Positions 27,613 to 58,920 of a stretch of 64,000 nucleotides of DNA are shown in pieces (the first letter of the stretch is position 1; every line of letters begins with the position of its first letter). The position numbers and the translations under genes are program-made. The DNA is from Synechococcus sp. CCY 0621 (GTDB lineage Bacteria > Cyanobacteriota > Cyanobacteriia > PCC-6307 > Cyanobiaceae), in the NCBI RefSeq assembly GCF_019038465.1, contig NZ_JAFKRH010000010.1:62001-126000 (forward strand), given 5' to 3'. Below the pieces are notes generated by a model. It did no database searches, was not told the DNA's origin, and saw only the letters and a list, made by a program, of their open reading frames with translations.

Positions 27613-27730
27613 TCAGTTTTTACCGTAGACATCATGGGTAGTTTTGCCTCCCAAGGAGCTGTTCGGTCTTACATGGCCATACCTCCAGAAGAAGCGGGCC
27701 AGGCTGATCTCGCCTTCCCTAGTGACCATC
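27613..27730 (-). pseudogene. IS3-family transposase C-terminal remnant
   Basis: The minus frame reads ISLARFFWRYGHVRPNSSLG and GKTTHDVYG before its stop at 27613. This matches the conserved end of IS3-family transposases (YN..RPHSSLGG.TP.E.Y). No catalytic core is present upstream, so it is a scar. The rest of the stretch from 27307 to 27880 shows no convincing gene. Confidence 0.6.
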
Positions 27731-27880
27731 CGGCACCACAGTGATGGCAGAATGATAGTGATCATCCTATAAGTTATAATGCGATCTTGGTTTGACTTTG
27801 CTGCCACACCATCCAGCCAGCCAATCGGTTCAGACCGCTACAAAAGCGAAGTGGCTTTGAGGTTAATATCTAATCGGCGA

Positions 27881-33450: not shown

Positions 33451-33456
33451 GCACAA

Positions 33457-40541: not shown

Positions 40542-41102
40542 ATGAACTTAGCCCTGCTCTTCAAGCTCCGACTGGTGGTGGCTGCCTTGGGGGGAAGCCA
40601 GCGTCTCGGCTGGTGGAACGCGGACGTTCTGACTAATACTGGCGAGTACCTCTTCAAGCAGGGCTTCCACCGCTCAGCACCCTTTGCCCAGACCAGGGCT
40701 GGCTTCCGGGCGGCCCAGCTGGCCTGCGATGAGGCCCTGGCCATCCAGCCCAGCCCAGGCGGACCGATCACCTGCCACCTGTTCCGGCTGACGCCGGTAA
40801 TAGAAGACGCCTTCGAGAACGAACGCAACCGCTGGATGGATGAGCCCGAGGCCTGGACAGACACCTTCCAGCAGGCCTGGGCGCTCACGCCTGAGCAGTG
40901 GCCTCAGGCCCTGATCGATCTGGCGGGTCTCGGAGCCGACAGTCTGGCCTGGGCGCGCGAGCAAACACCGCAAACCGCTAAGGCGCTGCGGCTGGCCGAT
41001 CGGGCAGAGATCCATCAGGGGCATCTGGAGAAACTGGCCGCCGGGTTCCTCTCCAGCCAACCAGGCCAGCTGGTGGTGCCCTACTTGCAGGTGGCGGACT
41101 GA
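40542..41102 (+). CDS. brxE: BrxE-like protein of the BREX operon
   Basis: This 186-residue soluble protein begins LLFKLRLVVAALGGSQRLGW and continues with WNADVLTNTGEYLFKQGF, FAQTRAGFRAAQLACDEA and AFENERNRWMDEPEAW. This pattern matches, from memory, the BrxE family described in type 6 BREX systems, where it also directly precedes brxA. Its biochemical role is unknown. It overlaps brxA by one base (TGATG), so it is part of the operon. No clear Shine-Dalgarno is seen before ATG 40542. The alternative is an unrelated BREX-associated small protein. Confidence 0.65.
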   Translation: MNLALLFKLRLVVAALGGSQRLGWWNADVLTNTGEYLFKQGFHRSAPFAQTRAGFRAAQLACDEALAIQPSPGGPITCHLFRLTPVIEDAFENERNRWMDEPEAWTDTFQQAWALTPEQWPQALIDLAGLGADSLAWAREQTPQTAKALRLADRAEIHQGHLEKLAAGFLSSQPGQLVVPYLQVAD

Positions 41103-42013
41103 TGACCGTGATCAAAACGGTTAGGCCCAAAGCTACCTCTGGCAAAAACATAGCTAGTCAGGAGAAGTCATTGGCTCTGACAGCAACCACTTCGAAATCC
41201 AAGCCCAAGGCGAACAGCAAGCCCAATCGCAAAGAGAAAGCCCCTGCCATCTCCCCCTACAGCAGCTACGGGCTGATCAAGGGCGCCTTGATCGACGACA
41301 CCCTGCAAATGTTCCAGGGTTGGGAGCTGGAAGCGAGCAAGCAGGTCAACCTGGATCAGGTGCGCGCCAGCAACAGCATCGGAGCCTCCACGCAGGCCTG
41401 GCTGAAGCAGGTGTGCAGCACGTTCAGCCGCCGCTTCGACCCAAGCGGTCGGGATCGCGCCCTGGCCCTGGCGGTGCTGACCGCCACCGGCCGGCGTCAC
41501 TGGAAACCTCTACTGCTCTGGCACATGGCCATCAGCGAGGGCCTGTTAGGCGATGGCCTGTCGTGGGCCTGGACGGAGTTCGAAGCCGGTGGTGATCTGC
41601 TCCAGACCCCCCAGGCCCTCGACTGGCTGGAGGGCCAAGCCGGGCATGGTCATCCGGAGGTGACCGACTGGAGCGAAGCCACCCGCAAGCGTGTCGCTGG
41701 CGGCCTGCTCAAGGCTGGGGTTGACTTCGGGCTGCTGCAGGGCCGGGTGAAACGCCGCTTCACCGCCTACTACTTGGCCGATGAGCCATTGCTCTATGTG
41801 CTCCTACAGGCCCTGGCCAGCAATGCCACTACGGCGGCGGCGCTGGCCGACCCCCGCTGGCTGTGGTTCCGCCTGCCGGAGACAGAGCTGGAGCATCGGC
41901 TGTTGCAGCTGCACCAGGCCAAGGTGATCAGCTACTACCGTGCCGGCTCGGTGGTGGATCTCAAGCTGCCGGCTAGCTGCGCTGAGGCCCTAGTCCAGAA
42001 GGTGTGGACATGA
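41102..42013 (+). CDS. brxA: BrxA (DUF1819), BREX protein
   Basis: This 303-residue protein has a Lys/Ser/Thr-rich, probably disordered N-terminus of about 55 residues. The BrxA domain follows from SPYSSYGLIKGALIDDTLQM onward, with FSRRFDPSGRDRALALAVLT, RHWKPLLLWHMAISEGL and a winged-helix-like end. BrxA is a small DNA-binding component of BREX (about 200 residues usually); the extra length here is the N-terminal tail. It ends in an ATGA overlap with brxB. Confidence 0.85.
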   Translation: MTVIKTVRPKATSGKNIASQEKSLALTATTSKSKPKANSKPNRKEKAPAISPYSSYGLIKGALIDDTLQMFQGWELEASKQVNLDQVRASNSIGASTQAWLKQVCSTFSRRFDPSGRDRALALAVLTATGRRHWKPLLLWHMAISEGLLGDGLSWAWTEFEAGGDLLQTPQALDWLEGQAGHGHPEVTDWSEATRKRVAGGLLKAGVDFGLLQGRVKRRFTAYYLADEPLLYVLLQALASNATTAAALADPRWLWFRLPETELEHRLLQLHQAKVISYYRAGSVVDLKLPASCAEALVQKVWT

Positions 42014-42618
42014 GCGGCATGGGCCAGAAGGAATGGAATCGCTGCCTGGAGCTGCAGCTCGAACCGGTGCTTATTGCGGCTGACTCCGGCGCGGGCCTGA
42101 GCACGTACACCGACATGCCCTTCGGGATCTTCCTCTACCCCCCCGACGACGAGTGGGAGCTGCGCCAGGAACTGCGCAACCTGGTGATCCGCCTCGAGAA
42201 TGCCGGCAAGACCGTGCAGAGGCTGTCGATGGCCCAGCTGTTGGAGCAGGCCCTCGCTGCCGCGGGGCTGTCGATGGAGGAGATCGCCGACGGGGAGAAA
42301 ACGGTGGGGCTGGAGATGGTGCGCGACACTATCCGCGACGTACTAAGCGGCAAGGCCGCGGGCTCCACCCCGCTTGATGAGCTGGTGGTCCAGGCTGTGG
42401 ACGCGTCCAAGCCCACCAGCAGCCACATCGTGTTTCTAGAGCGGGTAGGAGTGCTGTTCGATCTTCACCGCCCCTCGGCGCTGCTGGAGAACCTGCGCAC
42501 GAAGGTTATCCATCCGGTGGTGCTCTTCTACCCGGGGCAGCGGGATGGCCCTGCGGGCCTGCGCTTCATGGATGAAGCAGAAGCCGACCACAACTACCGC
42601 CCCAAACTTTTCGCCTGA
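42010..42618 (+). CDS. brxB: BrxB (DUF1788), BREX protein
   Basis: The start is ATG 42010, overlapping the brxA stop as ATGA; GTG 42004 is also possible. The product has about 202 residues: MPFGIFLYPPDDEWELRQEL, NAGKTVQRLSMAQLLEQAL, then SHIVFLERVGVLFDLHRPSA. The end is LLENLRTKVIHPVVLFYPGQ, YRPKLFA. The conserved gatekeeper-like regions (PxxEWxxR-like, and HPVVLFYPG near the C-terminus) are those of BrxB. It probably links other BREX subunits. brxC follows after two bases. Confidence 0.9.
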   Translation: MSGMGQKEWNRCLELQLEPVLIAADSGAGLSTYTDMPFGIFLYPPDDEWELRQELRNLVIRLENAGKTVQRLSMAQLLEQALAAAGLSMEEIADGEKTVGLEMVRDTIRDVLSGKAAGSTPLDELVVQAVDASKPTSSHIVFLERVGVLFDLHRPSALLENLRTKVIHPVVLFYPGQRDGPAGLRFMDEAEADHNYRPKLFA

Positions 42619-42620
42619 CC

Positions 42621-45600
42621 ATGCCCACCCAAGCCATCCGCCAGCTTTTCCCCCCCGGCCGGATCGACCGCAAGATCGAGGAGGTGATCAAGGTCGACCA
42701 GGACGACGTCGCCATCGTGCGCCAGGAGATCGACGACTACATCCTCACCGAATCGATTGAGCGCAACATGCTGCGCGTGTTGGAGGGCTATCGGGAGGCG
42801 CCCAACCGTCCGAGCGGTGACATTGCGATCTGGGTGGCGGGCTTCTTCGGGGCGGGCAAATCGAGCTTTGCCAAGTACCTGGGCCTGGCGATCAGCAACC
42901 GCGACCTGGGTGGTGAGAGCGCGGGTGATCTACTGGCCCAGAGGGCCAACAGCTTGCAGATCAAGGCCCTGCTCGGCGCCATCAAAGAGCAGATCCCTAC
43001 AGAGGCGATCATTTTCGACGTGTCGGCCGATCGCAACGTCAACGCCAGTGAGGCGCTCACCAAGATCTTCTACCGCAAGCTACTCGATCACCTTGGCTAC
43101 TCGAGCAGCCTAGAGGTGGCGGAATTGGAGATTGAGCTGGAGCAGCAGGAAAGAATCCAAGCCTTCCTGGATGGCTTTGCCGAGCTCTATCCCAACGAAG
43201 ACTGGGCTGTCGCCAAAACACGCCTACTACAAGCGATGCCCAGGGCCAGTGCGGTGATGCACGCCCTGGAACCGCAGACCTATGCCGAGAAGGACAGCTG
43301 GCTGAAAAACGCCCGCGAAGAAAACGTGCCGATCACGCCCGCGAGCCTGGCCGAGCGCACGATCGAACTGCTGGAACGCAAGCACCCCGGCAAGCAGCTG
43401 ATCTTCGTGGTGGATGAGGTCGGCCAGTACGTGGCGCGCGACATCCAGAAAATGCTTGACCTGCAGGCGATCGTGCAGCAGCTAGGCGTGAAGGGTCGAG
43501 GCAGGGTGTGGGTGATGGTCACCTCCCAGGAGAGGCTCTCCGATGTGGTCGGAGCCCTCGACGACAACCGCCCGGAACTGGCCCGGCTGCAGGACCGCTT
43601 TCCCTACAAGCCGCTGCTGGAGCCCTCTGACATCGCTGAGGTCACCAGCCGGCGGGTGTTGGGTAAGAGCAGCCAGGGAGAAGCAGCACTGCAGGCGCTG
43701 TTTCAGCAACACCAGGGCCGCCTGGCCACCCACACAAAGCTCGACACCAAGATCCGTTTGCCGGAGCTCACCGCCAAGGCCTTCGCCGATCTCTACCCGC
43801 TATTGCCGTATCAGATCGAGCTGATCATCATGGTGGTGTCGGGCCTGCGGCTCTCCGGCGGCGCCAGCAAGCAGTTCGGTGGTGCTAACCGGGCGATCAT
43901 CAAGTTGGCCCAGGAGCTGCTCACTAATCCCCAGAGCGGCCTGGCGGACCAGTCCGTGGGCGAACTGGTGACGCTCGATCGGGTCTACGACCTGCAGAGC
44001 AACAACATCGACTCCCAGTACCGGGGGAAGATCAGCGACATCGCCACCAAGGCCAGCCACCCGTTGGCGGCGTCGGTGGCCAAGGCGATCTGTCTGCTGC
44101 AGTTCGCCGATCAGGTGCCGGTGAGCGAGCGCAACATCGCCGTGGTGCTGCATCCACGGGTGGATGCCGATTCGCTCGAATCAGAGGTTCGGGAAGCCTG
44201 TGAACATCTGGTGGATCGCAACCTGATCCGCAAGGCCGATGGCCAATACCGGATCCCCAAGCCTGAAGAAGAAGACTGGGAGCAGGTGCGCAGCCAGCAG
44301 GCGCCTTCCGCCCAGGATCGTCATGGGCTACTGGCTGAAGCGCTCAAGCGAATCTGGGAACCAGTGCCGAGCGCTGCCCTGGGCCATGGTGTGAAGACCT
44401 TCAAGGCGGGGCTGCTGTTCCGTGGCACGGAGGAGGTCAAGGGCGATGTGCCTGTGCGGGTGGAGCGGGTGGATGGCAGCGAAGACTTCGACAACCGAGT
44501 GGAACAGCTGCGCCAGCAAAGCCAGAAAGACGCCAACACCTTCTTCTGGGCGATGCGACCCAGCCCCGAGCTGGAGCGGGCCCTTGGGGAATGGTTCCGC
44601 TCCCAGAAGGTGATCGATCTCAAGGGCCGCGATGCCAGCAGCAAGGGCCAGGTGCAGCTGGTGAGTGAGGAGCGCCGCAAGCTCGATGGCTTCCGCCAGC
44701 AGGCCTGCCAGCTGGTGGACCAGGCCCTGATCCATGGGGCAATCCTGCTCAACGGAGGCCCCTGCAACGGGCCGGCCAATCCAGCGGCCGCGGTGGTAGT
44801 GATGCGCGAGGTTCTGCGGGAGGGGCTGGCGCAGATCTACGGGCGCTTTTGCGATGCGCCGGTGAACCCCAGCGGCGATGAGCTCACCGATCTGCTCAAT
44901 GCCGACAACCTCAAAGGGCTCACGGGCAGCATCGAAACCCTGAAGTTATGCAAGGAGGAGGGTGGCCAATGGCTGATCGACACCAGTCGCCCCGCGTTGA
45001 AGGAGGTGCTCAACCGCATCCGGCTCAAGGGCGGCCAGAGCGGCAAGGAGCTGGTGGAGTGGTTTGGGGATGCCCCCTTCGGCTGGACATTGGATGCCGT
45101 GCGGTTTCTGATGGCAGCATTGCAGCACGCCAACCAGCTCAAGGCCACCCACAACGCCCAGAGCTACGTGGGCACGGCCAATCCACAGGTGCGGCCTCTG
45201 TTCACCAACAACACCAGCTTTCGGGCCACGGCCTTCGCCATCCATGAGGCCAGCCTCAGCCACCAAGCAGTGCTGGAAGCCAGCCAACTGTTCAACCAGT
45301 TCGCTGGCAAAACGGTGCTCGGTATTGCGCCGGGGCCATTGGCCAAGGAGATCCGCAGCTCAACGGTGGCGCTGACTGCCGAGATCAATGCCGTGAGCCG
45401 AGCGATGACTCCGTTGGATCTGCCCGGCCGTGAAGCCATCGATAAGGCAATCGAGCAGCTCTCCACGTGGCAGGACAGCGACGACGAGGAGGTGGTGAAG
45501 GGCTTCCGTGCCAGTGCTGCTGCGGTGAAGGAACAGTGGCAGCGAGCTCTCGCGATCAAGGAGGTGCTTGAGGCCCGCAGCACCGACCTCAAACGCGCCC

Positions 45601-46154
45601 GCCACGCACTGAGCGAACAGCTCTGGGGCCAGCTGCAGAAGGAGAGCGATCTGCCCGCTGAGCTGGAAGAGGCCCACGAAGATCTGAGCGATCGGATGAA
45701 GGCCCTGAGTTTCTACGAGAAGTTGCCCGAAATCGATCAGCTCACCAAAAAGCTGGAAGTCGCCTACGACGAGCGGCGGGAGCAGGCCCAGCAGGCGCTA
45801 GCGACGGGGGTGCAACAGCGCCTCACCGAGCTGGAGCGGACCCCCGGCTTTGCCGCTCTCGATCCCCAGGTGAAGGAGCAGCTGCGCCAACCTTTGCAGA
45901 AGAAAGCTAGCGATGGCGAAGGAATGGATCTGGTGCGGCTACGGGATCAACCGGCCATGCTCGAGGGGCTGCTCCGCCAGCAGAAGGACACCGCTCTGAA
46001 CATCACCTACCCACCGCAGGAGGTGAGCACCGTGAGTGTGCGGGAGCTGTGCAGGGAACCCTTCGATGCAGAGGGATTGGAGGAGGTGCTCGATCGCATC
46101 CGCCAGCGCTGCGAAGAGGAGCTCGGCAACGATCGCAAGGTCTTGCTGCAGTGA
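42621..46154 (+). CDS. brxC: BrxC, BREX P-loop ATPase
   Basis: This 1,177-residue ATPase is the largest conserved BREX component. Walker A is WVAGFFGAGKSSFAKYLG, with Lys near 80. A Walker B/sensor region follows in QLIFVVDEVGQYVARDIQ near 260-275, and TSQERLSDVVGALDDNRPEL lies downstream. The middle has helical linkers, and the last 250 residues contain long coiled coils. The N-terminal start IRQLFPPGRIDRKIEEVIKV is typical of BrxC/PglY. The protein is full length with no interruptions. Confidence 0.93.
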   Translation: MPTQAIRQLFPPGRIDRKIEEVIKVDQDDVAIVRQEIDDYILTESIERNMLRVLEGYREAPNRPSGDIAIWVAGFFGAGKSSFAKYLGLAISNRDLGGESAGDLLAQRANSLQIKALLGAIKEQIPTEAIIFDVSADRNVNASEALTKIFYRKLLDHLGYSSSLEVAELEIELEQQERIQAFLDGFAELYPNEDWAVAKTRLLQAMPRASAVMHALEPQTYAEKDSWLKNAREENVPITPASLAERTIELLERKHPGKQLIFVVDEVGQYVARDIQKMLDLQAIVQQLGVKGRGRVWVMVTSQERLSDVVGALDDNRPELARLQDRFPYKPLLEPSDIAEVTSRRVLGKSSQGEAALQALFQQHQGRLATHTKLDTKIRLPELTAKAFADLYPLLPYQIELIIMVVSGLRLSGGASKQFGGANRAIIKLAQELLTNPQSGLADQSVGELVTLDRVYDLQSNNIDSQYRGKISDIATKASHPLAASVAKAICLLQFADQVPVSERNIAVVLHPRVDADSLESEVREACEHLVDRNLIRKADGQYRIPKPEEEDWEQVRSQQAPSAQDRHGLLAEALKRIWEPVPSAALGHGVKTFKAGLLFRGTEEVKGDVPVRVERVDGSEDFDNRVEQLRQQSQKDANTFFWAMRPSPELERALGEWFRSQKVIDLKGRDASSKGQVQLVSEERRKLDGFRQQACQLVDQALIHGAILLNGGPCNGPANPAAAVVVMREVLREGLAQIYGRFCDAPVNPSGDELTDLLNADNLKGLTGSIETLKLCKEEGGQWLIDTSRPALKEVLNRIRLKGGQSGKELVEWFGDAPFGWTLDAVRFLMAALQHANQLKATHNAQSYVGTANPQVRPLFTNNTSFRATAFAIHEASLSHQAVLEASQLFNQFAGKTVLGIAPGPLAKEIRSSTVALTAEINAVSRAMTPLDLPGREAIDKAIEQLSTWQDSDDEEVVKGFRASAAAVKEQWQRALAIKEVLEARSTDLKRARHALSEQLWGQLQKESDLPAELEEAHEDLSDRMKALSFYEKLPEIDQLTKKLEVAYDERREQAQQALATGVQQRLTELERTPGFAALDPQVKEQLRQPLQKKASDGEGMDLVRLRDQPAMLEGLLRQQKDTALNITYPPQEVSTVSVRELCREPFDAEGLEEVLDRIRQRCEEELGNDRKVLLQ

Positions 46155-46168
46155 GAAGGTCCTGAAGC

Positions 46169-49100
46169 ATGGAGAAAGAACAACGCAACAGGCTGCAGAA
46201 AGCCACCCAAGATGCCCGCCGTCTGCTTGAAGACGAGTTCCGCAGCCAGTTGCTGCAGACCTACGACATTGATGTGGAGAAGGTGCGCTGGGCGGAGGAG
46301 CCCGGTGCGCACCTGCAGGCTGAACAGCGGTTGATCCGCGAAAAGCTTATGGCCTGGATCGGGCACAAGGAAGCGCAGATCAACGACCGCAAGGAGGCTC
46401 TGCTGCTGGCCCTTCGGGAGATGGCGTTCACGGCGTTAAACCGATTTGTGGCGCTTAAGCTGATGGAAGCCCGCGAGTTGGTGCGGCCCTGCGTGAGCAG
46501 CGGGCTGGAAAGCGAAGGGTTCCAGGAGTTCACCGCTGTGGCCCAGGGACTGCTGGCCGATCAGGAGGGCAGCTACCGGCTTTACCTGGAAACAATCTTT
46601 GAGGATGTGAGCCGCGAGCTGCGGGCGCTGTTTGACCCACGGGATCCAGCCAGCCTGCTGTGGCCAAAGCGCTCGGCGCTGTTGGAGCTGCTGGTGATCC
46701 TCAACCGGACCGAGCTGGATGAACTTTGGGAAGAAGACGAAACCCTGGGCTGGGTTTACCAGTACTTCAATGGCGACGCCGAGCGCAAGAAGATGCGTGA
46801 GGAATCGGCGGCACCGCGAAACAGCCGCGAGCTGGCAGTACGCAACCAGTTCTTCACGCCGCGCTATGTGGTGGAGTTCCTCACCGATAACACCCTGGGC
46901 CGGATCTGGCATGAGATGCGGCAGGGCAATTCAGGATTGAAGGATCGCTGCCGCTATCTGGTGCGGCGACCGAATGAGATCTGGTTGCTACCAGGAGAAA
47001 AGGCCCCAGCGGGGGCCGTTGCCGACAAAGCCCTTAGCCAGGAAGAACTGCTCCAGCAGCCGGTGCACACCCCCCATCGGCCACTGAAAGACCCGCGGGA
47101 GATCCGCATGCTCGATCCAGCCTGCGGATCGATGCACTTTGGCCTCTATGCCTTTGATCTCTATCTGGAGATCTACGCCGAAGCATGGGAGATCGCGCAG
47201 GGTTCAGATGAGCAGGCCAAGCAAGGAGAGGCCTTTGCACCCTTTGTTACCTACGCCGCCAGCTTTGCTGACAAGGTCTCTTTCCTGCGAGAAATGCCGC
47301 GGCTGATCCTGCAGCACAATATCCACGGCATCGACATTGATCCACGCGCTACCCAGATCGCTCGGCTCACTCTATGGCTGCGAGCACAACGGGCCTGGCA
47401 GGAGCAACAGGTTGAGAATGCTGGACCCGGACGCCCACAAATCACCCGCTCCAATGTGGTGTGTGCCGAGCCGATGCCAGGCGAGCGGGAGCTGCTGGCT
47501 GATTTTGTTGACCAACAGTTCCCAGAGGAAGAACGAGGCCTTGTTCAGCAGTTGCTGGAGGCGATCTTCGACAAGATGCAGCTTGCGGGAGAAGCCGGAT
47601 CCCTGCTCAAGATCGAGGAAGAGATCCGTGATGCCATTGATGAGGCGCGCAGGAAATGGCAACAGCTCGCCATCCAGCAAGGGGATCTCTTCAGTCCTGC
47701 CGAATTGGCGGCACTGGGCCAGGTCGGATCTTCGCTAAATACTGATCTTCAGAACCTCACAAAAGATTTTTGGGTTGACCTCGAGAGAAGAATCTACAAA
47801 GCATTGAGAGATTATGCCTACCAAGCAGAAAGCCAAGGAAATTTCCAGTCTCGACTGTTTGCTGAAGATGCCGCAGCAGGTTTTGCGTTCATTGAAACAA
47901 GCCAAATCCGCTATGATGTCGTATTAATGAATCCTCCGTTTGGGGAGGCGGCGGGAAGGTCTGAAAGCCTATTTTCAGACAGCTACGCTTACTGGGCAAA
48001 GAATATACTTTGCGCATTTATTGGCCGATGCTCGGGCATGCTTAAAGCTTGCGGAATGCTAGGAGTTATTGCAGACAGGACAGTCGCAATAAAATCTACA
48101 TATGAGGAGTTCCGCAAAAAAGTAATTTTAGGCGATTTCCGCCTAGAAACTGTCCTTGACCTTGGATGGGGGGTTCTCGATGCCAATGTAGAAACAATAT
48201 CGATGACGCTATGCAAATACAAAAATCAAGCAAGCGCTATTTGTATTGACAAGCGAGAGTCGCATGTGAAATCTGAATTAGAGCCTATCATTCACGGTCT
48301 ACTCTCTACTTCGAATCCGGTTAGCGATACGCAAGTCAGGTTTGCGCAAACCGCATTATTTCATCGCCTTCCAAATTCTGTATTGGGTTTTGATTTCCCT
48401 GAATTCCTGGTCCGAGCATTTGGGGCTTTCTCATCGCTTGAAGAGACAGGTTTTCGTGCTTACGGAGGCCATTCATTAAAGGCTGATCGACATAACAGGG
48501 TTTGGTGGGAACTCTCGCAGGTAAGCCCGCCAGATCAGCTTTGGCCAATGTTTAACGGGTCCGGTTTTTCCCCATACTCAATCTCATTTAGGGAAGTTGC
48601 TATATCCCCATGTGCACTGCAAGACTTCCCAATCGACTCTGCAACGGTCCTAAGAAATACTCAGATCCACGGAAGGCATGGACTTTGTTTTGCAAAGAGA
48701 GGCGAGTACTTCTGCGCACATGTTGCTCCCGCAGGCCTATTATTCACGCAAGAAGGCAGACCTCTTCCTATTGCTGACAAGAGCAAAGCGTTGCTGCTGC
48801 TAGCCTATCTCAATACACCCCTTATAAGATATTCGCTCAACAAGTACTGTGGCCAACATAAGACTTCTGGCTACGTAAACCTTCTTCCTATTGCCCCAGA
48901 TTTTAGCGAGATCCGGTCGCAGCTTAATAATGTGATGGAAGTCTGCGCGATCGCAACCGATATTAAGGGCTACGACGAAACTTCGATTGAATATTCGAAT
49001 TTTCTCTCCACTCTTGCCAGAAACGGCATCTCCCCAATTGAAGCGCTAAATTCAAAACTGGCTAAGTACATAAATATGAGCACCTCGCTAGAGCAGGACT

Positions 49101-50602
49101 GTGAACAGATGATTGAGTCAATGTACTCCGTCAGTAACCAAGAAGCAGAGCTACTTGAGGCGTTTTCGCGCTATCAGCCTAAGCGACTTCTCCCAATAGA
49201 AGACTTAGAGCTTGATGCAGTCCCATCTTTTTATTTTAGGTCTTTAATATCTGAAATGCTTGGCCATGCGTTTGGTCGTTGGAATGTCCAGAACAAAGAC
49301 GAGGATATTGCACCGCAAGAATTCTTTGACCCTTTTGCAGCGTTGCCATTATTGCCGTCAGTTCAATTAATCAACGGCTTGAGATCTCCTGCCATTCCTG
49401 ACGACTTGCCAGCTGACTACCCCCTGATTGTACCTTGGGAAGGCATCCTCGTGGATGACCCGAGCCATCCCTTGGATATCGAACTACGCATCCGCGAGGT
49501 CATCAACATCATTTGGAATAGCAAAGGCGGTGACAATGCTTTTGCTATCACCAACGAGGCCTGCGAAACCCTTGGAGTCGCAACCCTCCGCGACTATTTC
49601 CGCCGCCCTACCAACTTCTTCGCCGATCACCTCAAGCGCTATTCCAAGAGCCGCCGCCAGGCCCCCATCTACTGGCAGCTCTCAGCCGGCAGTGGCAGCT
49701 ATTCCGTCTGGCTTTACTACCACCGATTCACTACTGACACGCTCTATCAAGTCCTCGGCATAGTGAAACTCCGGCTTGAGGAGGCCGAACGAGAGATAAG
49801 CGATCTTGGAGCACATGGCGCCCTCTCAGTTGATGCCGCCAACTGCCTCCAAGAGGCTCAATGCCTGCTAGCAGATCTACGGATACTCAAGAGTGAGCTG
49901 GATCTCGTTTCCCCGCTCTGGAATCCCTATCTCAACGATGGCGTGATCATCAACCACGCCGTCCTCTGGCGGATTACGCCTTTCACCCCTTGGCAAAAAA
50001 AGTGCAAGGAGTGTTGGGACAAGTTGGTCAACGGCGATTACGACTGGGGCCACCTCGCCTTCCACCTCTGGCCCGAGCGGGTGATCAAGAAATGCCAGTC
50101 CGATCGCAGCCTCGCCATCGCCCACGGCTTGGAAGAGCGCCTCTGGCAGGAAACCAACAAGGGCAATTGGCTACCGCGTAAGGTGTCGGAGTCCGAGCTG
50201 CAGGCCCTGATCGCCGAGCACAGCAAGCCTGCGGTGCAGAACGCTCTGGAGCGCTTCCTGTCTGCACCGCCACCGGTGGCAGCCGCTCGCATCCGCGCCC
50301 CACGGGCAGAGAAGTCGTCCTTCAACGGCACGACCCGTCGATCTCGCGGGTCTGCCACACCAATCGATGCGGAAGCCTCCCGCCAGACCCTGCTCGTGCT
50401 CACCGCCGCCCCAGCCGAAGGCCTTGGCAGGAATGCCATCGCCGATCTGCTGGATGTGGAGGCCGCCTCGCTCACGGCTGTGATCAAGCAGCTCAAGGAG
50501 AGCGGTCAGATCGAGCAGCTCGGGGCTGCAAAGGGCACCAAGTACCGGCTTACGGAGCAGGGGCGGGCGGCTCTTGCAAGCCAGGCTGGAGAGGAAGACT
50601 GA
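46169..50602 (+). CDS. pglX: PglX, BREX adenine-specific DNA methyltransferase
   Basis: PglX methylates the host BREX motif (N6-adenine) and is needed for self/non-self discrimination. The 1,477-residue protein has a helical N-terminal part, SAM-binding motif I DPACGSMHFG from Asp 316, FDIDPRATQIARL-type motif IDIDPRATQIARLTLWLRAQ, and catalytic NPPF at 588-591. A large specificity region and a C-terminal winged-helix (LLDVEAASLTAVIKQLKES, GTKYRLTEQGRAAL) complete it. It is longer than usual (about 1,200), mostly from the C-terminal extension. The segment about 47,740-49,330 is much richer in A+T than the rest of the gene. The stop overlaps the pglZ start by one base. Confidence 0.93.
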   Translation: MEKEQRNRLQKATQDARRLLEDEFRSQLLQTYDIDVEKVRWAEEPGAHLQAEQRLIREKLMAWIGHKEAQINDRKEALLLALREMAFTALNRFVALKLMEARELVRPCVSSGLESEGFQEFTAVAQGLLADQEGSYRLYLETIFEDVSRELRALFDPRDPASLLWPKRSALLELLVILNRTELDELWEEDETLGWVYQYFNGDAERKKMREESAAPRNSRELAVRNQFFTPRYVVEFLTDNTLGRIWHEMRQGNSGLKDRCRYLVRRPNEIWLLPGEKAPAGAVADKALSQEELLQQPVHTPHRPLKDPREIRMLDPACGSMHFGLYAFDLYLEIYAEAWEIAQGSDEQAKQGEAFAPFVTYAASFADKVSFLREMPRLILQHNIHGIDIDPRATQIARLTLWLRAQRAWQEQQVENAGPGRPQITRSNVVCAEPMPGERELLADFVDQQFPEEERGLVQQLLEAIFDKMQLAGEAGSLLKIEEEIRDAIDEARRKWQQLAIQQGDLFSPAELAALGQVGSSLNTDLQNLTKDFWVDLERRIYKALRDYAYQAESQGNFQSRLFAEDAAAGFAFIETSQIRYDVVLMNPPFGEAAGRSESLFSDSYAYWAKNILCAFIGRCSGMLKACGMLGVIADRTVAIKSTYEEFRKKVILGDFRLETVLDLGWGVLDANVETISMTLCKYKNQASAICIDKRESHVKSELEPIIHGLLSTSNPVSDTQVRFAQTALFHRLPNSVLGFDFPEFLVRAFGAFSSLEETGFRAYGGHSLKADRHNRVWWELSQVSPPDQLWPMFNGSGFSPYSISFREVAISPCALQDFPIDSATVLRNTQIHGRHGLCFAKRGEYFCAHVAPAGLLFTQEGRPLPIADKSKALLLLAYLNTPLIRYSLNKYCGQHKTSGYVNLLPIAPDFSEIRSQLNNVMEVCAIATDIKGYDETSIEYSNFLSTLARNGISPIEALNSKLAKYINMSTSLEQDCEQMIESMYSVSNQEAELLEAFSRYQPKRLLPIEDLELDAVPSFYFRSLISEMLGHAFGRWNVQNKDEDIAPQEFFDPFAALPLLPSVQLINGLRSPAIPDDLPADYPLIVPWEGILVDDPSHPLDIELRIREVINIIWNSKGGDNAFAITNEACETLGVATLRDYFRRPTNFFADHLKRYSKSRRQAPIYWQLSAGSGSYSVWLYYHRFTTDTLYQVLGIVKLRLEEAEREISDLGAHGALSVDAANCLQEAQCLLADLRILKSELDLVSPLWNPYLNDGVIINHAVLWRITPFTPWQKKCKECWDKLVNGDYDWGHLAFHLWPERVIKKCQSDRSLAIAHGLEERLWQETNKGNWLPRKVSESELQALIAEHSKPAVQNALERFLSAPPPVAAARIRAPRAEKSSFNGTTRRSRGSATPIDAEASRQTLLVLTAAPAEGLGRNAIADLLDVEAASLTAVIKQLKESGQIEQLGAAKGTKYRLTEQGRAALASQAGEED

Positions 50603-53295
50603 TGGCAGCAGAAGCGCCCAACAAGCTCCACCGCCGCCTTTGCCAGGAGCTGGCGAAACAGCTCAGAGACCATCGGGTGCTGCTGGTCTTTGATCCGGGT
50701 CAGCAGATGCGCCCCTTCCTTGATGACGTCGCCTCGACCCAGCCCAGCGCTGGTGAACCCGGCGCCCTGAACCTGGGCGAACAGCAGCCCCGCTGGCTGG
50801 TGGCCGGATCCAGCTTCTACCAGTTGCGCAGCCAGCTGGAACCCTTTGTGGCCAAGGATCTGCCCGATCCCCTGCTCATCTACCTGCCCGATCGCCAGGA
50901 AGCCGAGGGGCGCGACGTGCTGCTGGAACTGATCCGGGCGGGCGCTTGCTTCGACATCCAGCTGGTCAATCGTGCCCGGGTCTACCTGCGCGAGGTGCTG
51001 GAGCCCGACAAGGTGCAGCAGCTGCTCCAGCGCCCAGACCTCACCTATCGCGACGTCGCCCTAGCCCTGGAGCAATCCGGGGATGGGGGCTTCAGCCAGC
51101 TCAAGGCCCTGTTTCAGAAGGAGCTGCAGCGCAACACCTCCCCCGAGAACGCCGAGCTGGCCCGCTTCTGGCTGGCGTCCGATGCGCTCGATGCCGCGAT
51201 CACTACCAAGGGCCTGCAGAACGAGCTGCAGGATCTGCTCCACAGCCGTTGGGGTCTCGGCTTTCCTGAAGACACATCCCTGGCCGACTGGCGCCAGCGC
51301 GCCCAGCGGGCCCTGCTGCTGCATGAGTTCCTGCACGACTGGCACGGCGATGAGCTCACCTCCTTCGCCAGACAATCGCTTCCGGTAGGCAAGGCCGCCG
51401 AAGAAAACGGCCTCGCCGATGTGCAAGGCCTGCGCCGCAGTCACGCCGATGTCTACATCGCCATCGCCTCCCGCATCGAAGCCGAACTGGAACTGCCCGA
51501 GCTGATCAGCGGTGAGCGGCCCGGCGTGCTCGGCTCGATCGACACCTTCCCCTGCGAAGAGCAGTTTCTGCTGCGCAGCGTTGATGCCTTCATCGCCAAG
51601 GGCGAGGTCGCCAAGGCCAAGGAGCTGGTGGCTGCCCGAAATAACAGCTTCTGGTTGGTGGGTCAGCCCACCGACGAACAGCAGTCGAAGCGCCGGCTGC
51701 AGTGGGCCTTGGCCAGCACCGCCGCCTACCTCGGCCTGGCGCTCAATCAGGCGCAGGCACAGCTGCCCAAAGCGGCAGCCCCCGTTGAAGCCTGGTTGGC
51801 CTATCAGGCGGAGGTCGCTCATCACGTCGATGGCCTGCAGCGACACCTCGAGCAACAGGTGGCTGAGCTCTCGGCCTCAGAGGTGGAGATCGCCCAGGGG
51901 CTGGAGCAGCTGCGGGGTCGCTATGAGGCCCTGCTGGAGCAGCAGACCCAGCGCTTCACCGATGCCCTTCAGCAGGCCGGCTGGTTAATCCCCGGCGCCT
52001 TCCCCCAAACGCGCACTTGGGCTGAGCGGGTGCAGCCAGGCGCCGGCAGAGCGGTGGTGTTCTGGGTGGATGCCCTGCGCTACGAGATGGGTGCCACCCT
52101 GCACGAGCGCTTCAGCGGCTGGAGCCGCGAGCAGCTCACCGACCTCAAGCTGGAGATCGCCCAGGCGGCCCTGCCCTCGATCACGCCCGTCGGCATGGCG
52201 GCCCTGCTGCCCGGCGCCGAACGCAGCTTTGCCGTGGAAGACGTAATTGGCTCCCCCTGCTCCGTGGTGGATGGGGTACCGGTGGGCTGGAGCGAAGGCA
52301 AGGCCAAACGCTTGGCCCATCTGCAGCAACGGGTGCCTACAGCCGTAGTGATCTCGTTGGTTGATCTGATCCGCAGCAAGGAGGCCGTACTGATCGAGAA
52401 GCTGTCCGGTAGCGGTCCGGTGGTGGTCACCAGCGTCGGCATCGACAACGCTGGCGAGCGCGACACCGACGAGAACCTCGCCAACGTGCGCACCGATATG
52501 CAGCGCGAGCTCGACACCATCGAGGACGCCGTGCGGCGCCTGTCAGCCCTGCCGCTTGAGCAGCCGCTGGAGCGTTTCGTGATCACGGCGGATCACGGCT
52601 TCCTCCATCTGCCCCTGGGCCGTGAGCCGGCCATGCGCATCGATCCGCCCGACGGAAAGCTGTTCAAGTTGGAGCGCCGCTGTTGGCTGGGTCATCCATC
52701 TGCCGTGAAGGCCCCCTGTGTGGAGATCCAGCCCGCTGCTCTGGGCTATGGACGAGAGGGTCTCACGGTGGTGGTGCCGCGCTCCTCAGGCGTGCTCAAG
52801 GCCGGCGGCAGCCTCTGCTATCACCATGGCGGCAGCAGTATCCAGGAGCTGCTGATCCCGCTACTGAGCTTCCGTTGCCCCCCGGCTGCGGGAGCAGAAG
52901 GAGTTGGAACTGCCTCAGCCACCGGCAGCACGGGCAAGTCCAAAAAGCAGAAGCCCTGGCCAGGAACACTGGTGGAGAAGGTCACCAACCGCATCCTGAT
53001 GGTGCCGATCGAACTGACCGTCGACCTGCTCAACCAGGGCCACACTCGCCAGACAGTGCTCGCCGCCTACGACTGCAAAACGCAAGAGCTGGTGGCAACC
53101 CCCATCCAGGCCATCGGCGCCGAGCTCGACCGCGACACCAACCGCCTCACCCTCACCCCCGGCCAGGCCGCCACCATTGGCCTGATGCTGCCCGCCGAGG
53201 TGAGCGCTAAGAAGCTCTACCTGGAGCTCCGTGATGCCGCCACCGATCTGGTGCTGTTCAAGAGCCCCGATCTGGCGGTGGATCTGATCGGGTGA
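50602..53295 (+). CDS. pglZ: PglZ, BREX alkaline-phosphatase-fold protein
   Basis: This 897-residue protein has a helical N-terminal region of about 470 residues. The PglZ domain of the alkaline phosphatase superfamily follows. Metal-site motifs are VVFWVDALRYEMGATL (Asp near 490) and FVITADHGFLHLP (Asp-His-Gly at 664-666). The C-terminus has a small beta domain (KLYLELRDAATDLVLFKSPD). PglZ is present in all BREX types and its nuclease/phosphatase-like site is essential for defence in studied systems. Uninterrupted and in operon with pglX; 146 bases separate it from brxL. Confidence 0.93.
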   Translation: MAAEAPNKLHRRLCQELAKQLRDHRVLLVFDPGQQMRPFLDDVASTQPSAGEPGALNLGEQQPRWLVAGSSFYQLRSQLEPFVAKDLPDPLLIYLPDRQEAEGRDVLLELIRAGACFDIQLVNRARVYLREVLEPDKVQQLLQRPDLTYRDVALALEQSGDGGFSQLKALFQKELQRNTSPENAELARFWLASDALDAAITTKGLQNELQDLLHSRWGLGFPEDTSLADWRQRAQRALLLHEFLHDWHGDELTSFARQSLPVGKAAEENGLADVQGLRRSHADVYIAIASRIEAELELPELISGERPGVLGSIDTFPCEEQFLLRSVDAFIAKGEVAKAKELVAARNNSFWLVGQPTDEQQSKRRLQWALASTAAYLGLALNQAQAQLPKAAAPVEAWLAYQAEVAHHVDGLQRHLEQQVAELSASEVEIAQGLEQLRGRYEALLEQQTQRFTDALQQAGWLIPGAFPQTRTWAERVQPGAGRAVVFWVDALRYEMGATLHERFSGWSREQLTDLKLEIAQAALPSITPVGMAALLPGAERSFAVEDVIGSPCSVVDGVPVGWSEGKAKRLAHLQQRVPTAVVISLVDLIRSKEAVLIEKLSGSGPVVVTSVGIDNAGERDTDENLANVRTDMQRELDTIEDAVRRLSALPLEQPLERFVITADHGFLHLPLGREPAMRIDPPDGKLFKLERRCWLGHPSAVKAPCVEIQPAALGYGREGLTVVVPRSSGVLKAGGSLCYHHGGSSIQELLIPLLSFRCPPAAGAEGVGTASATGSTGKSKKQKPWPGTLVEKVTNRILMVPIELTVDLLNQGHTRQTVLAAYDCKTQELVATPIQAIGAELDRDTNRLTLTPGQAATIGLMLPAEVSAKKLYLELRDAATDLVLFKSPDLAVDLIG

Positions 53296-53441
53296 TGGCC
53301 ATGAAGCAGGAGCGACAGCCCCCAGGGGCAGAGAGACTTCCAGGCATGACGCCTGAACCTGTTGGGGCGCTCGGTACAGATCCGTAATCCGCAGGCCCTA
53401 GAGGCCACATCGCAGCGTTCCCCTTAATCCCCCGCTCCGTC

Positions 53442-55463
53442 ATGATCCCTGCCCGCGACGCTCTCGACGACAAGGTCAATCAGGTCTTCGCGGGTAAATG
53501 CGTCCGCAAGGACCTGGTGCGGGCCGTAAAAGTCGGCGCCAACGTGCCGGTGTTCGTGCTCGAGTACCTGCTGGGCAAGTACTGCGCCTCCTCCGATTCC
53601 ACTGCCATTGAGCTGGGCCTGGCCGTGGTGCGCGACACCCTGGCCAACAACTACATTCGCCCCGACGAGGCCACCAAGGCCCAGAGCAAGGTTAAGCAAA
53701 AGGGGCGCTACACCTTCATCGACAAGGTCAAGGTGCGCCTGGTGGGCTCCACCTATGTGGCTGAGTGCGTGAACTTTGGCAGCAGCAACCTTCGCATCGC
53801 CGACGAAGACGTCCATTCCTTTGAGCGGCTTCTGACTGGAGGGGTGTGGGCACAGGTGGAGGTGGAGTGGGATGAGAGCGACAGCAAAGCGCCCTTCTCG
53901 ATCGGTCAGCTCACGCCCATCCAACTGGCCACCTTCAACCTGGAGGAGTACCGAAAGCTGCGGACTCAATTCACCACCGAAGAGTGGATTGATCTGCTGA
54001 TCCGCTCGATCGGCTATGAGCCAGCGGAAATGAGCCAGCGGCTCAAGCTCCTGTTTCTCCTGCGCCTGATCCCGCTCTGTGAGCGCAATTACAACTTGGT
54101 GGAGCTGGGACCCCGTGGCACCGGCAAGAGCTTTGCCGTTCAGGAGCTCTCCCCTTATGCAGCCCTCCTTACAGGCCCTACCACCGTGGCCAACCTCTTC
54201 GGCCACATGAGCGGCAAGGTCAAGGGGATGGTGTCGATCTGGGACGTGGTGGGCTTCGACGAGGTGGCTGACCTCCAGAAAATGCCCAAGGAGGTCATCA
54301 CCACCATGAAGACCTACTGCGAATCCGGGCAGTTTCAACGTGGTGCCGAGAGCTTTGCTGGCGACGCCAGCATCGCCATGTTCGGCAACACCCAGCAGCC
54401 GATCGATGTGATGGTGCAGACCGGGCACCTGTTCGCGCCGATGCCCGATGTGATCCGCGATGACATGGCCTTCATTGACCGGCTGCACTGCTACCTGCCG
54501 GGCTGGGAAATCCCGAAGATGCGTAATGAGTTCTTCACCGACCACTATGGCTTCGTGATCGACTATCTCGCTGAGGCCCTGCGAGATCTGAGAAAACTCA
54601 ACTACACCGAGTTGTGCGATACCTACTTCGGTATGGGCACCCACCTCAATACCCGCGATCGCAAGGCTGTACGTCGCACCGTATCGGGACTCGTCAAGAT
54701 CATCCATCCCCACGGGGCACCTTCCAAGGAAGACCTGGAGGAAATCCTCAAGCTGGCGATCGAGGGCAGACGCCGCGTCAAGGAACAGCTCAAGAAGATG
54801 GGGTCGTTCGAGTACAGCCAAACGTCATTCAGTTATTCCGACAACGAGACGGGCGAGGAGCACTTCGTGGGCGTACCCGAGCAGGGCGGTCAGGACCTCA
54901 TCGCTGCAGAACCCATGGCGCCCGGTTCCATTTACGCCACCTCCGTCACTGGAGACGGCACCGTCGGTCTGTTCCGCTTGGAGGTATCGATTGCGGCTGG
55001 CAGCGGCAAGCTCAAACCCGCCGGAGGCATAAGCGGGGCGATGAAGGAGTCGATCACCCGTGCATTTGCCTATCTGCAGGCCAACAAGCATGCGTTCTCG
55101 ATCGGCCATGAGGCCGACATCTACGACTTCAACGTTGAGGCCATCGACCTACTGGGCAACAAAGTAGAAGCCGAGGTGGGCGTTGCCTTTTTCATCGCGG
55201 CTTTCTCCGCTATTCGTCGTGCCCCGGCTCGCGCCGGCATGCTGGTGATCGGAGACATGAGCATCCAGGGCAACATCAAGGCCGCGCGCTCCCTAGTCGA
55301 ACCGCTTCAGGTTGCGATGGACAATGGGGCCCGTTGTGCCCTTATCCCCGCTGAGAACAAGCGGAGTTTCCTGGAAGTGAGCACGGATGTGATCGACAAG
55401 ATTGACCCGATCTTTTACAACGATGTGAAGACGGCGACCTTCAAGGCGCTGGAGATGAACTGA
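53442..55463 (+). CDS. brxL: BrxL, Lon-like AAA+ protein of type 1 BREX
   Basis: This 673-residue protein combines an N-terminal DNA-binding region (starting DALDDKVNQVFAGKCVRKDL), an AAA+ ATPase and a Lon-like C-terminal domain. The Walker A motif is LGPRGTGKSFAVQEL (Lys 229), and Walker B lies in VVGFDEVADLQ. The C-terminal part contains GAFSAIRRAPA-type sequence FSAIRRAPARAGMLVIGDMS then IQGNIKAARSL. BrxL is the hallmark of type 1 BREX. The 146-base gap upstream may hold its own promoter. It closes the operon. Confidence 0.93.
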   Translation: MIPARDALDDKVNQVFAGKCVRKDLVRAVKVGANVPVFVLEYLLGKYCASSDSTAIELGLAVVRDTLANNYIRPDEATKAQSKVKQKGRYTFIDKVKVRLVGSTYVAECVNFGSSNLRIADEDVHSFERLLTGGVWAQVEVEWDESDSKAPFSIGQLTPIQLATFNLEEYRKLRTQFTTEEWIDLLIRSIGYEPAEMSQRLKLLFLLRLIPLCERNYNLVELGPRGTGKSFAVQELSPYAALLTGPTTVANLFGHMSGKVKGMVSIWDVVGFDEVADLQKMPKEVITTMKTYCESGQFQRGAESFAGDASIAMFGNTQQPIDVMVQTGHLFAPMPDVIRDDMAFIDRLHCYLPGWEIPKMRNEFFTDHYGFVIDYLAEALRDLRKLNYTELCDTYFGMGTHLNTRDRKAVRRTVSGLVKIIHPHGAPSKEDLEEILKLAIEGRRRVKEQLKKMGSFEYSQTSFSYSDNETGEEHFVGVPEQGGQDLIAAEPMAPGSIYATSVTGDGTVGLFRLEVSIAAGSGKLKPAGGISGAMKESITRAFAYLQANKHAFSIGHEADIYDFNVEAIDLLGNKVEAEVGVAFFIAAFSAIRRAPARAGMLVIGDMSIQGNIKAARSLVEPLQVAMDNGARCALIPAENKRSFLEVSTDVIDKIDPIFYNDVKTATFKALEMN

Positions 55464-57813: not shown

Positions 57814-58920
57814 TTGTTCTCGTACATCTCCACAGAAGACCGGATTCCGTCCGGCCATCCCCTGCGCCAGGTCAGGCGGCTGGCGGATCAGGCCTTGGAT
57901 CGGCTCAACCCCACCTTCTGCAGGCTCTACCCCGAGGGCGGCAGGCCCTCGATCCCGCCGGAGCAACTGCTGCTAGCCCTGTTGCTGCAGGCGATCTACG
58001 GCATCCGCTCGGAGCGGATGCTGATGGAACAGCTGGACTACAACCTGCTGTTCCGCTGGTTTGTCGGCCTCAATCCCGACGACGTCGTCTGGCATCCCAC
58101 GACATTCACCAAGAACCGCGATCGGCTGCTCAACGAGGAGCTCATGGCGAAGTTTCTGGAGCTGCTGCTGGCCTCACCGGAGGTCAAGCCGCTGCTGAGC
58201 TCTGAGCACTTCTCGGTCGATGGCACCTTGCTGAGGGCCTGGGCCTCTCACAGCTCACTGGAGCGGATCGAGGGGATCGACGACGATCCACCACCACCCA
58301 GTGGCGGCAAGGGGTTCGGTAGCTCAGCCGGCCAGGGGAAGCAGCGAGCCAAGGGTGATTTCAGAGGACTGCTGCTCTCCAACCAGACCCATCGCTCCGT
58401 CACCGACGGGGACGCCCGGCTGTTTCGCAAGTCCGGTGGCACTGGGGCATTCCTGAGCTACCTGGACCACTGCCTCACGGAGAACCGCCATGGTCTGGTG
58501 GTGGCCAGTGAGGTGACCCCAGCGGATGGCTATGGGGAGCGGGCTGCGGCCGTGCGGATGGCGCGTTCGCTCCCGGGTGCTCACCAGAAGACGCTGGGAG
58601 CCGACAAGGGCTACGACACCAGGGATTTCGTGGCCGACATCCGCTTTGCCGGGATCACGCCGCATGTGGCGCAGAACATCCAGGCCCGCCGCCGCTCCGC
58701 GATCGATGCCCGCACCGTTCGTCATCAGGGTTACGCCCGCTCGATCAACGCCAGGAAGCGGATCGAGCAGGTGTTTGGCTGGATGAAACAGGCCGCCGGC
58801 CTGCGGCAGCTCAAGGCCCGGGGTCGATCACGGGTCGGCGCAGTGTTCAGGCTGCATGTGGTGGCCTACAACCTGATCCGCCTAGCCAACCTGCTCAGCC
58901 CGAGGGAGGTCCTGGCATGA
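57814..58920 (+). CDS. IS5-group DDE transposase, early amber codon
   Basis: The ORF of 368 residues begins (as scored) at TTG 57814, giving [20 protein letters not shown]. Related transposases normally start about ten codons earlier. Here an ATG at 57784 gives MRG followed by TAG at 57793, so the natural start appears to carry a nonsense mutation, and use of TTG would be required. DDE residues are visible: Asp in [14 protein letters not shown], Asp in [12 protein letters not shown] and Glu in [14 protein letters not shown]. The insert [17 protein letters not shown] is a low-complexity linker. Confidence 0.85.

What the first reader, a model, noticed from the sequence alone, without database searches (positions are those of the whole stretch)
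47740..49330. AT-rich mosaic segment inside pglX covering the specificity region
Both ends of pglX are GC-rich like the rest of the operon, but about 1.6 kb in the middle (from near residue 520 to 1,050, including NPPF and the presumed target-recognition part) is visibly AT-rich with different codon use. Known: PglX determines the methylated motif, and specificity domains of methylases are often exchanged by recombination. Inference: the recognition module was replaced by a foreign one, changing the BREX motif while keeping the scaffold.
Basis: partly seen in the sequence, partly recalled or inferred. Interest (0 to 1): 0.7.

Follow-up and report, generated by a model that had tools for sequence, protein, structure and literature searches.

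The report
Swapped recognition module in BREX methylase
The middle of this cyanobacterial phage-defence methylase gene is very probably a replaced piece of DNA that sets which DNA word the system reads; related bacteria, and E. coli, carry different versions of the same piece inside an otherwise conserved gene.

Summary
(1) Low GC alone does not show a foreign source: 7 of 7 full-length family members fitted and 10 of 11 E. coli alleles have an AT-rich middle. (2) Better evidence shows replacement: flanks 66-92% and 61-87% identical around a core of 17-30%, codons near chance level inside the core, conflicting trees, and a close pair (G005/L073) whose DNA identity collapses just after the catalytic NPPF. 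(3) The exchanged unit exceeds the recognition domain: it begins 2-6 residues after motif IV and holds the second half of the methylase fold, the recognition domain and the spacer helices. Shoulders of synonymous divergence point to ordinary homologous recombination. E. coli has the same left edge. A changed methylation motif is inferred, not tested. The kind is known from restriction-modification enzymes; nine library searches showed no description of this unit in PglX.

The parts
46169..50602 (+). pglX, BREX adenine methyltransferase and specificity factor, 1477 aa
   Evidence: NCBIfam NF033452 BREX_1_MTaseX 561.5 bits, cut-off 500; PADLOC PglX E=0; Pfam Eco57I
46169..47725 (+). N-terminal scaffold (codons 1-519): N-terminal domain and SAM-binding half of the methylase
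   Evidence: GC3 0.71; residues 1-500 are 66-92% identical among 7 relatives
47114..47131 (+). Motif I DPACGS (residues 316-321), SAM binding; function from family knowledge
   Evidence: invariant in the 3-protein alignment A1
47726..49441 (+). AT-rich segment (codons 520-1091)
   Evidence: GC3 0.43; log-likelihood gain 59, shuffle maximum 13.1
47726..47941 (+). AT-rich left shoulder over conserved residues 520-591
   Evidence: GC3 14 of 41 at conserved columns, against 61 of 97 in codons 390-519, p=0.0027
47930..47941 (+). Catalytic motif IV NPPF (588-591); left limit of the exchanged core
   Evidence: MNPPFG shared by all 7 aligned relatives, identity lost directly after it; left change points 593-597 in 17 of 21 pairs
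47942..48397 (+). Exchanged core 1: post-motif-IV half of the methylase domain (residues 592-743)
   Evidence: mapped from E. coli PglX by alignment with published borders
48398..48925 (+). Exchanged core 2: target recognition domain (residues 744-919)
   Evidence: mapped as above
48926..49240 (+). Exchanged core 3: spacer helices (residues 920-1024)
   Evidence: mapped as above
49241..49441 (+). Right shoulder, start of the C-terminal domain (residues 1025-1091), AT-rich and partly conserved
49442..50602 (+). C-terminal scaffold (codons 1092 to stop)
   Evidence: GC3 0.72; residues 1141-1477 are 61-87% identical among 7 relatives
40542..41102 (+). BrxE-family gene
   Evidence: NF033447 99.8 bits, cut-off 40
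41102..42013 (+). brxA
   Evidence: PF08849 39.0 bits, cut-off 23
42004..42618 (+). brxB
   Evidence: PF08747 59 bits, cut-off 26.8
42621..46154 (+). brxC
   Evidence: NF033441 742 bits, cut-off 400
50602..53295 (+). pglZ
   Evidence: PF08665 57.7 bits, cut-off 25; below every NCBIfam PglZ subtype cut-off, best NF033443 BREX-6
53442..55463 (+). brxL
   Evidence: TIGR02653 943.4 bits, cut-off 628.25

Best explanation
The middle of pglX is an exchangeable specificity module. Homologous recombination between pglX alleles, with crossovers in the conserved flanks, replaces the stretch from just after catalytic motif IV to the end of the spacer helices (and often a little beyond). The incoming piece stays in frame with the kept SAM-binding half and the kept N- and C-terminal domains. 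Shown: the composition break in the window; replacement of the core among relatives, with near-saturated synonymous sites; conflicting trees; synonymous shoulders beside the core. Inferred: that the window's own tract is such an import together with part of its conserved flank; that the donor was another PglX allele written in more AT-rich codons; that the swap changed the methylated 6-bp motif and with it the phages restricted.
For: Scaffold 66-92% and 61-87%, core 17-30%, over all 21 pairs of 7 proteins. G005/L073: DNA identity mostly 0.87-0.98 before the edge, 0.37-0.73 inside, 0.87-0.98 from residue 1153. Codon identity at shared residues in the core 69 of 179 (chance 0.33) against 375 of 452 and 243 of 291 in the scaffolds; G273/G325 29 of 99 (chance 0.29) against 202 of 255 and 209 of 278. 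Core tree joins G000 and G325 (98/99) and rejects G273+G325 (p 0.005), which are sisters in N (91/89) and PglZ (100/99); the C part rejects G020+G293 (p 0.0009), which are sisters in N. Synonymous shoulders in E. coli on both sides and in cyanobacteria on the left. Within E. coli: L084/L085 are 99-100% identical in DNA to about codon 640, then about 0.44-0.74. Window: GC3 step at codon 520 inside conserved sequence, p=0.0027.
Against: No donor or close relative of the window's own core was found, so the swap in this very gene is inferred from composition, family pattern and tree. In five of six relatives the fitted low-GC3 segment starts further upstream than in the window (residues 181-414), so an early start is not peculiar to the window. 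Right-hand shoulder absent in the cyanobacterial set (Spearman -0.22, p 0.58). Four of 12 forced-clade tests were not below 0.05 (0.055, 0.085, 0.105, 0.107), and the clades were chosen after seeing the trees. The N-tree position of G000 has weak support (59/64). No methylome.
Confidence: 0.83

Rival explanations
1. In-place hypervariability: the recognition half diverges by mutation under diversifying selection, without exchange, and is AT-rich because codon selection is relaxed there.
For: The core is AT-rich in all 7 full-length family members fitted. Cores remain alignable over their length at about 20-27% identity, so they share a fold.
Against: Codons at residues shared inside the core are near chance (0.39 against 0.33; 0.29 against 0.29) while the scaffolds keep 0.75-0.84; L084/L085 are nearly identical up to about codon 640 and then unlike; L077 and L079 share core and C part on differing N parts.
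Confidence: 0.07
2. Larger exchange: the right half of the operon (core, C part, pglZ) came in as one block, and the core is only its AT-rich edge.
For: C part and PglZ place G000 with G211 (88/87 and 93/96), BrxC and N reject that pair (p 0.0014 and 0.027).
Against: The C part returns to scaffold composition (GC3 0.72), and the core tree pairs G000 with G325, not with the C-part partner (G211's core, whose frame is interrupted, was not in that tree).
Confidence: 0.07
3. A switch: site-specific inversion or a silent cassette store feeds alternative modules into pglX, as in invertible hsdS loci (recalled comparison).
For: pglX phase variation is reported (passages of PMC11341690 and PMC6326788); relative G211 has a G8 tract at a frame break in its core.
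Against: No inverted repeat of 25 nt or more in 40.4-56.3 kb; only one weak further match to the segment in the genome (28% over about 200 aa); none of the seven operon genes matched a recombinase model.
Confidence: 0.03

Closest known systems
BREX type 1 PglX/BrxX of Salmonella D23580 and E. coli HS (PDB 8c45/8q56, 9ewz/9ex7/9exh)
   Same: Same domain order and motifs; phmmer E=1.1e-25 to 8c45; profile alignment with 11 E. coli alleles E=1.8e-74 over 1109 columns. The TRD is the most variable part there too (passage of PMC11842806).
   Different: About 23% identity; the window protein has a longer insert before motif IV and about 200 more residues at the C-terminus. Published work describes TRD variability and engineered point changes; the passages seen do not describe a motif-IV-to-spacer exchange unit.
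E. coli HS against Salmonella StySA pglX divergence (PMC9009780)
   Same: The paper notes that the alignment of the two BREX systems diverges within pglX and links this to variable recognition domains (passage).
   Different: Two alleles only; the passages seen give no edges, composition or synonymous test.
TRD movement in Type I and Type III restriction-modification genes of Helicobacter pylori (PMC3983042 and work cited there)
   Same: Recognition sequences move by recombination at flanking repeats or at DNA encoding conserved methylase motifs (passage); here too the edge is a methylase motif.
   Different: Those are Type I S and Type III M genes, some with movement between positions or genes; here the piece stays in place, in a BREX methylase, and includes half of the methylase fold.
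MmeI, Type IIL restriction-modification enzyme
   Same: Closest structural homologue of PglX by DALI according to PMC11341690 (passage).
   Different: Has a nuclease domain; no MmeI sequences were compared here beyond a sub-threshold Pfam match (MmeI_Mtase, 23.6 bits, cut-off 27).

Membership tests
BREX type 1 | PglX of the BREX-1 model | tested here: met
   NF033452 561.5 bits, cut-off 500
BREX type 1 | brxA, brxB, brxC, pglX, pglZ, brxL in one operon | tested here: met
   Pfam, PADLOC and NCBIfam matches, same strand, 41102-55463
BREX type 1 | PglZ type A or B by NCBIfam cut-off | tested here: not met
   TIGR02687 100.6 bits of 270.35; NF033450 52.7 of 400
BREX type 6 | PglX over the BREX-6 cut-off | tested here: not met
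   NF033455 325.7 bits, cut-off 900
BREX type 6 | BrxE | tested here: inconclusive
   BrxE family met (99.8 of 40), BREX-6 BrxE equivalog not met (31.4 of 80)
BREX type 6 | brxD and brxHI (recalled) | not tested
   not searched for
Specificity-module exchange by recombination (as in R-M enzymes) | Conserved flanks with a non-conserved core in the same position among relatives | tested here: met
Specificity-module exchange by recombination (as in R-M enzymes) | Core replaced, not merely fast-evolving (synonymous saturation, tree conflict) | tested here: met
   for relatives; for the window by tree and composition only
Specificity-module exchange by recombination (as in R-M enzymes) | Different cores read different DNA motifs | not testable with these tools
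   needs methylomes
Domain movement within a gene (DoMo) | The same recognition sequence found at two positions, with flanking repeats | tested here: not met
   one weak other match in the genome; no inverted and only four short imperfect direct-repeat families in the operon
Invertible or cassette-switching specificity locus | Inverted repeats, silent copies, recombinase | tested here: not met
   the genome is in 101 contigs, so a copy in a gap is not excluded

The most novel reading that the evidence does not exclude
PglX carries a general, discrete exchange unit. Catalytic motif IV sets its left edge in bacteria as far apart as picocyanobacteria and E. coli; the post-motif-IV half of the methylase, the recognition domain and the spacer travel together as one AT-shifted piece among BREX alleles, so that BREX systems change their self/non-self word by ordinary homologous recombination while keeping the rest of the defence machine.
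Probability: 0.5. Interest if true: 0.55.

Novelty: new member of a known kind. Interest (0 to 1): 0.4.

Why it matters
Laboratory work has changed the BREX motif by point mutation; how it changes in nature is little described in what I could search. A defined exchange unit gives natural joints for module swaps, predicts from sequence which strains should read different motifs, and warns that an AT-rich patch in a defence methylase need not mean a foreign gene.

Tried and rejected
Structure: AlphaFold model of residues 140-1335 with a 5-sequence alignment had mean pLDDT 37.7 and was not used; no fold search was run; domain borders were carried over by alignment instead. Donor search: in 386 genomes of the phylum 4 matched the segment at E<=1e-10, one of them the window's own genome, the best other being G020, 44% over the first 162 residues; plasmids gave 20 records, all under 60% identity; phages none. 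Three viral-contig scans gave one further family member, L073; the second found the same contig again and the third none. The N part on plasmids gave 292 records, all under 60%, none used as a family member. Low GC as sole proof of foreign origin was rejected because the family shares it. Whole-gene import was rejected because both ends match the family in sequence and composition.

Rows dropped: E. coli L080 (internal stop, annotated as frameshifted) and L081 (identical to L075) before alignment; pair L077/L079 before the edge count, and the 7 pairs with G325, which lacks about its first 209 residues, when cyanobacterial edges are quoted; G211 (interrupted frame) from the full-length alignments, its two frames used apart; G033 (C part only) from all but the C tree; G115, G021, G030, G010, G038, G087, G004, G031 and G001 (distant or partial) from family counts, five of them used for composition only. 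Of 57 matching E. coli records 45 were listed and 12 fetched, plus the query allele L074. In one search a homopolymer scan of the window gene read the wrong record and printed nothing; it is not used. An earlier count said that G325 lacks a gene between pglX and pglZ; one search shows about 1.9 kb there and the report follows.
Full report
What is there. The window holds a BREX operon: a BrxE-family gene (40542-41102), brxA, brxB, brxC, pglX (46169-50602), pglZ and brxL (to 55463). PglX passes the BREX-1 model (561.5 of 500 bits) and fails the BREX-6 model (325.7 of 900). PglZ passes no NCBIfam subtype cut-off, its best match being BREX-6. So the operon is type-1-like with type-6 features. Named relatives (Synechococcus HJ21-Hayes, a Cyanobium MAG, Microcystis elabens) suggest a picocyanobacterium; that is inference.

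The observation. GC3 within pglX breaks at codons 520 and 1091 (47726 and 49441): 0.71, 0.43, 0.72. The log-likelihood gain is 59 against a maximum of 13.1 in 200 shuffles. The same amino acids in the scaffold's codons would have GC3 0.71. Synonymous usage differs with p=2e-28. None of 2807 windows of this length outside pglX is as AT-rich. A recursive split would begin the low segment at codon 390, so the left edge is the softer one.

Is low GC the mark of a foreign piece? Not by itself. By the same fit 7 of 7 family proteins (G000, G020, G273, G293, G002, G005, G325) have an AT-rich middle (gains 19-74); in five of the six relatives it starts further upstream than in the window, at residues 181-414 in window numbering, and in G005 at 508. 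L073 shows it too (GC3 0.76 in the N part, 0.43 in the core). In E. coli 10 of 11 distinct alleles drop from 0.45-0.46 to 0.34-0.37; L078 does not (0.45, 0.45, 0.46). In single genes from elsewhere the GC offset from the N part is -0.12 in Acinetobacter, -0.11 in Halomarina, -0.09 in a short Natrinema gene, and only -0.03 to -0.06 in Haladaptatus, Hymenobacter, Aulosira and the cyanobacterial PglX of G021, G030, G010, G038 and G087 (where no C-terminal landmark was found, the 'module' ran to the gene's end). The window's offset (-0.14) is the largest of the six family members in that table (the others -0.05 to -0.12); L073 has a like value (0.62 to 0.48). Core GC is about 0.46-0.53 in these cyanobacteria and mostly 0.34-0.37 in E. 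coli, so it goes with the host; one common AT-rich donor pool is not needed.

The window's shoulder. The AT-rich segment begins about 70 codons before motif IV, over conserved sequence. At conserved columns of codons 520-591 the window's GC3 is 14 of 41, against 61 of 97 in codons 390-519 (p=0.0027). Five of six relatives show no step there (p 0.46 to 0.85); G005 does, weakly (p=0.044). Against pooled relatives p=0.026. The simplest reading is that conserved donor flank came along with the core. The columns were chosen after the break point was seen, so these p-values are somewhat optimistic.

Replacement in the family. Identity over all 21 pairs of the seven proteins is 66-92% (residues 1-500), 17-30% (600-1050) and 61-87% (1141-1477). 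The loss comes directly after MNPPFG. The clearest case is G005 against L073: DNA identity per 20-codon bin is mostly 0.87-0.98 before the edge (one dip to 0.65 at codons 201-219, and 0.79-0.90 in the last bins), 0.37-0.73 inside, 0.57-0.77 over residues 1038-1150, then 0.87-0.98. If the core had only evolved fast, codons at residues shared by both proteins would match as they do in the scaffold. They do not: 69 of 179 (0.39, chance 0.33) in the core, 375 of 452 (0.83) and 243 of 291 (0.84) in the scaffolds. G273/G325 give 29 of 99 (0.29, chance 0.29), 202 of 255 and 209 of 278. In E. coli the median over 55 pairs is 0.45 in the core, 0.88 and 0.78 outside; chance level was not computed there. 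Residues 1051-1140 of G325 are 70% identical to G005 but 38-49% to the other five, although its N and C parts are nearer to G273; this marks another joint.

Trees. In the N part G273 and G325 are sisters (91/89), as are G020 and G293 (88/86); G000 stands near G002/G020/G293 with weak support (59/64). In the core G000 and G325 are sisters (98/99). In the C part and PglZ G000 and G211 are sisters (88/87, 93/96). Of 12 forced-clade tests 8 gave p below 0.05: the core rejects G273+G325 (0.005); the C part rejects G020+G293 (0.0009); N rejects G000+G211 (0.027) and G000+G325 (0.029); BrxC rejects G000+G211 (0.0014); PglZ rejects G000+G002+G020+G293 (0.0036) and G211+G002+G020+G293 (0.0008); BrxL rejects G000+G211 (0.028). 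Four did not: G020+G002 in N (0.085), G005+G211 in C (0.055), G000+G002+G020+G293 in C (0.105), G020+G293 in the core (0.107). The clades were picked after seeing the trees. The segments do not share one history, and the right half of the operon has a history of its own.

Extent of the unit. Change points on 21 pairs of eight proteins (the 7 pairs with the truncated G325 set aside) put the left edge at residue 593-597 in 17 and at 489-505 in 4, all with G002; right edges lie at 1036-1150. Alignment with E. coli PglX (hhalign E=1.8e-74, 1109 columns; positions from a joint MAFFT alignment) maps published borders onto the window: methylase domain to about 743, TRD 744-919, spacer 920-1024 (borders from a passage of PMC11341690). 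The unit therefore holds the post-motif-IV half of the methylase, the TRD and the spacer, and often the first part of the C-terminal domain. This fits two published points: a loop at 591-600 of the Salmonella methylase domain was among the regions targeted when its motif was changed, and the closed methylase domain reads the sixth base (passage of PMC11842806).

Control in a second phylum. A megablast of one E. coli plasmid pglX on 5426 E. coli genomes matched 57 records; 2 have a place covering at least 80% of the query, and 38 of the 45 listed match in two pieces covering 56-66%. Eleven distinct alleles have medians of 98% (1-500), 36% (520-960; 1 of 55 pairs over 90%) and 94% (970 on). Left edges lie at 511-520 in 34 of 54 pairs, 30 of them at 516, three residues past NPPY; the others at 521-600 (12), 601-660 (3) and 661-663 (5). 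Right edges run from 956 to 1018. L084 and L085 are 99-100% identical in DNA to about codon 640 and then 0.44-0.74 until about codon 1015. L077 (plasmid) and L079 (chromosome) are 99-100% identical from codon 361 on, while their first 360 codons differ by up to 7% per bin.

How the exchange happens. Codon identity at shared residues rises with distance from the core: in E. coli from 0.69 to 0.98 on the left (Spearman 0.85) and from 0.58 to 0.98 on the right (1.0, six bins); in five close cyanobacterial members on the left (0.84, p=8e-5) but not on the right (-0.22, p=0.58); for G005/L073 on the left (0.62, p=0.013), right not computed. Such shoulders are what homologous recombination in the flanks leaves behind. 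There are no inverted repeats of 25 nt or more, only one weak further match in the genome, and no recombinase model among the operon genes, which speaks against a switch. A caution: a change point in amino-acid identity marks where constraint ends as well as where crossovers fell; the codon test, L084/L085 and the shoulders are the evidence for exchange.

What it does. PglX gives the motif and is needed for methylation and defence (passages). That this swap changed the motif is a reasonable inference, not tested.

Is it new? TRD exchange in restriction enzymes is classical (passages), TRD variability in PglX is in print, and the divergence of E. coli HS and StySA within pglX was noted. In nine searches of an open-access library I saw no description of the motif-IV-to-spacer unit, its shoulders or its AT offset in PglX. 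The 2015 BREX paper is not held, and papers were seen as passages only. I file it as a new member of a known kind; the generality across phyla is the bolder part.

Noticed in passing
window 53442-55463; L037 (G005): BrxL has its own history: G005's BrxL is 96% identical to the window's, while its BrxC is 63% and PglZ 58%. BrxL groups G000 with G005 and G211 (100/100), so brxL too seems to be exchanged.
   Followed up: partly
L066 and L033 (G211), L033 about 6621: The pglX frame is interrupted at a run of eight G inside the core: phase variation, as reported for other pglX genes, or an assembly error in this MAG.
   Followed up: partly
L036, L065, L037, L066, L038, L067, between pglX and pglZ: A gene of about 560-670 aa (by eye only, AlbA_2/helix-turn-helix-like) lies between pglX and pglZ in five relatives, with more genes in L038, and about 1.9 kb lies there in L067; the window and G273 lack it.
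   Followed up: no
L073 / L093 (IMGVR_UViG_3300042301_006228): A contig filed as viral holds long frames in BREX order, pglX confirmed, with 92-93% identity to G005 in the N part: a mobile carrier or, more likely, a mislabelled host contig.
   Followed up: partly
window 26311-33456: A second AT-rich stretch (GC 0.51-0.56) with a pentapeptide-repeat protein, a GTPase and a 1281-aa dynamin-like protein with GTPase domains; perhaps another island.
   Followed up: no
window 57814-58920: A DDE transposase gene lies about 2.3 kb downstream of brxL.
   Followed up: no
L040 (G115): A more distant PglX is split into two frames of 817 and 676 aa, the first ending after the catalytic part (query residue 683) and the second starting at 731.
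   Followed up: no
window 40542-41102: A BrxE-family gene heads an operon that has brxL; 59-77% identical copies were found in six of seven relatives' stretches searched.
   Followed up: partly
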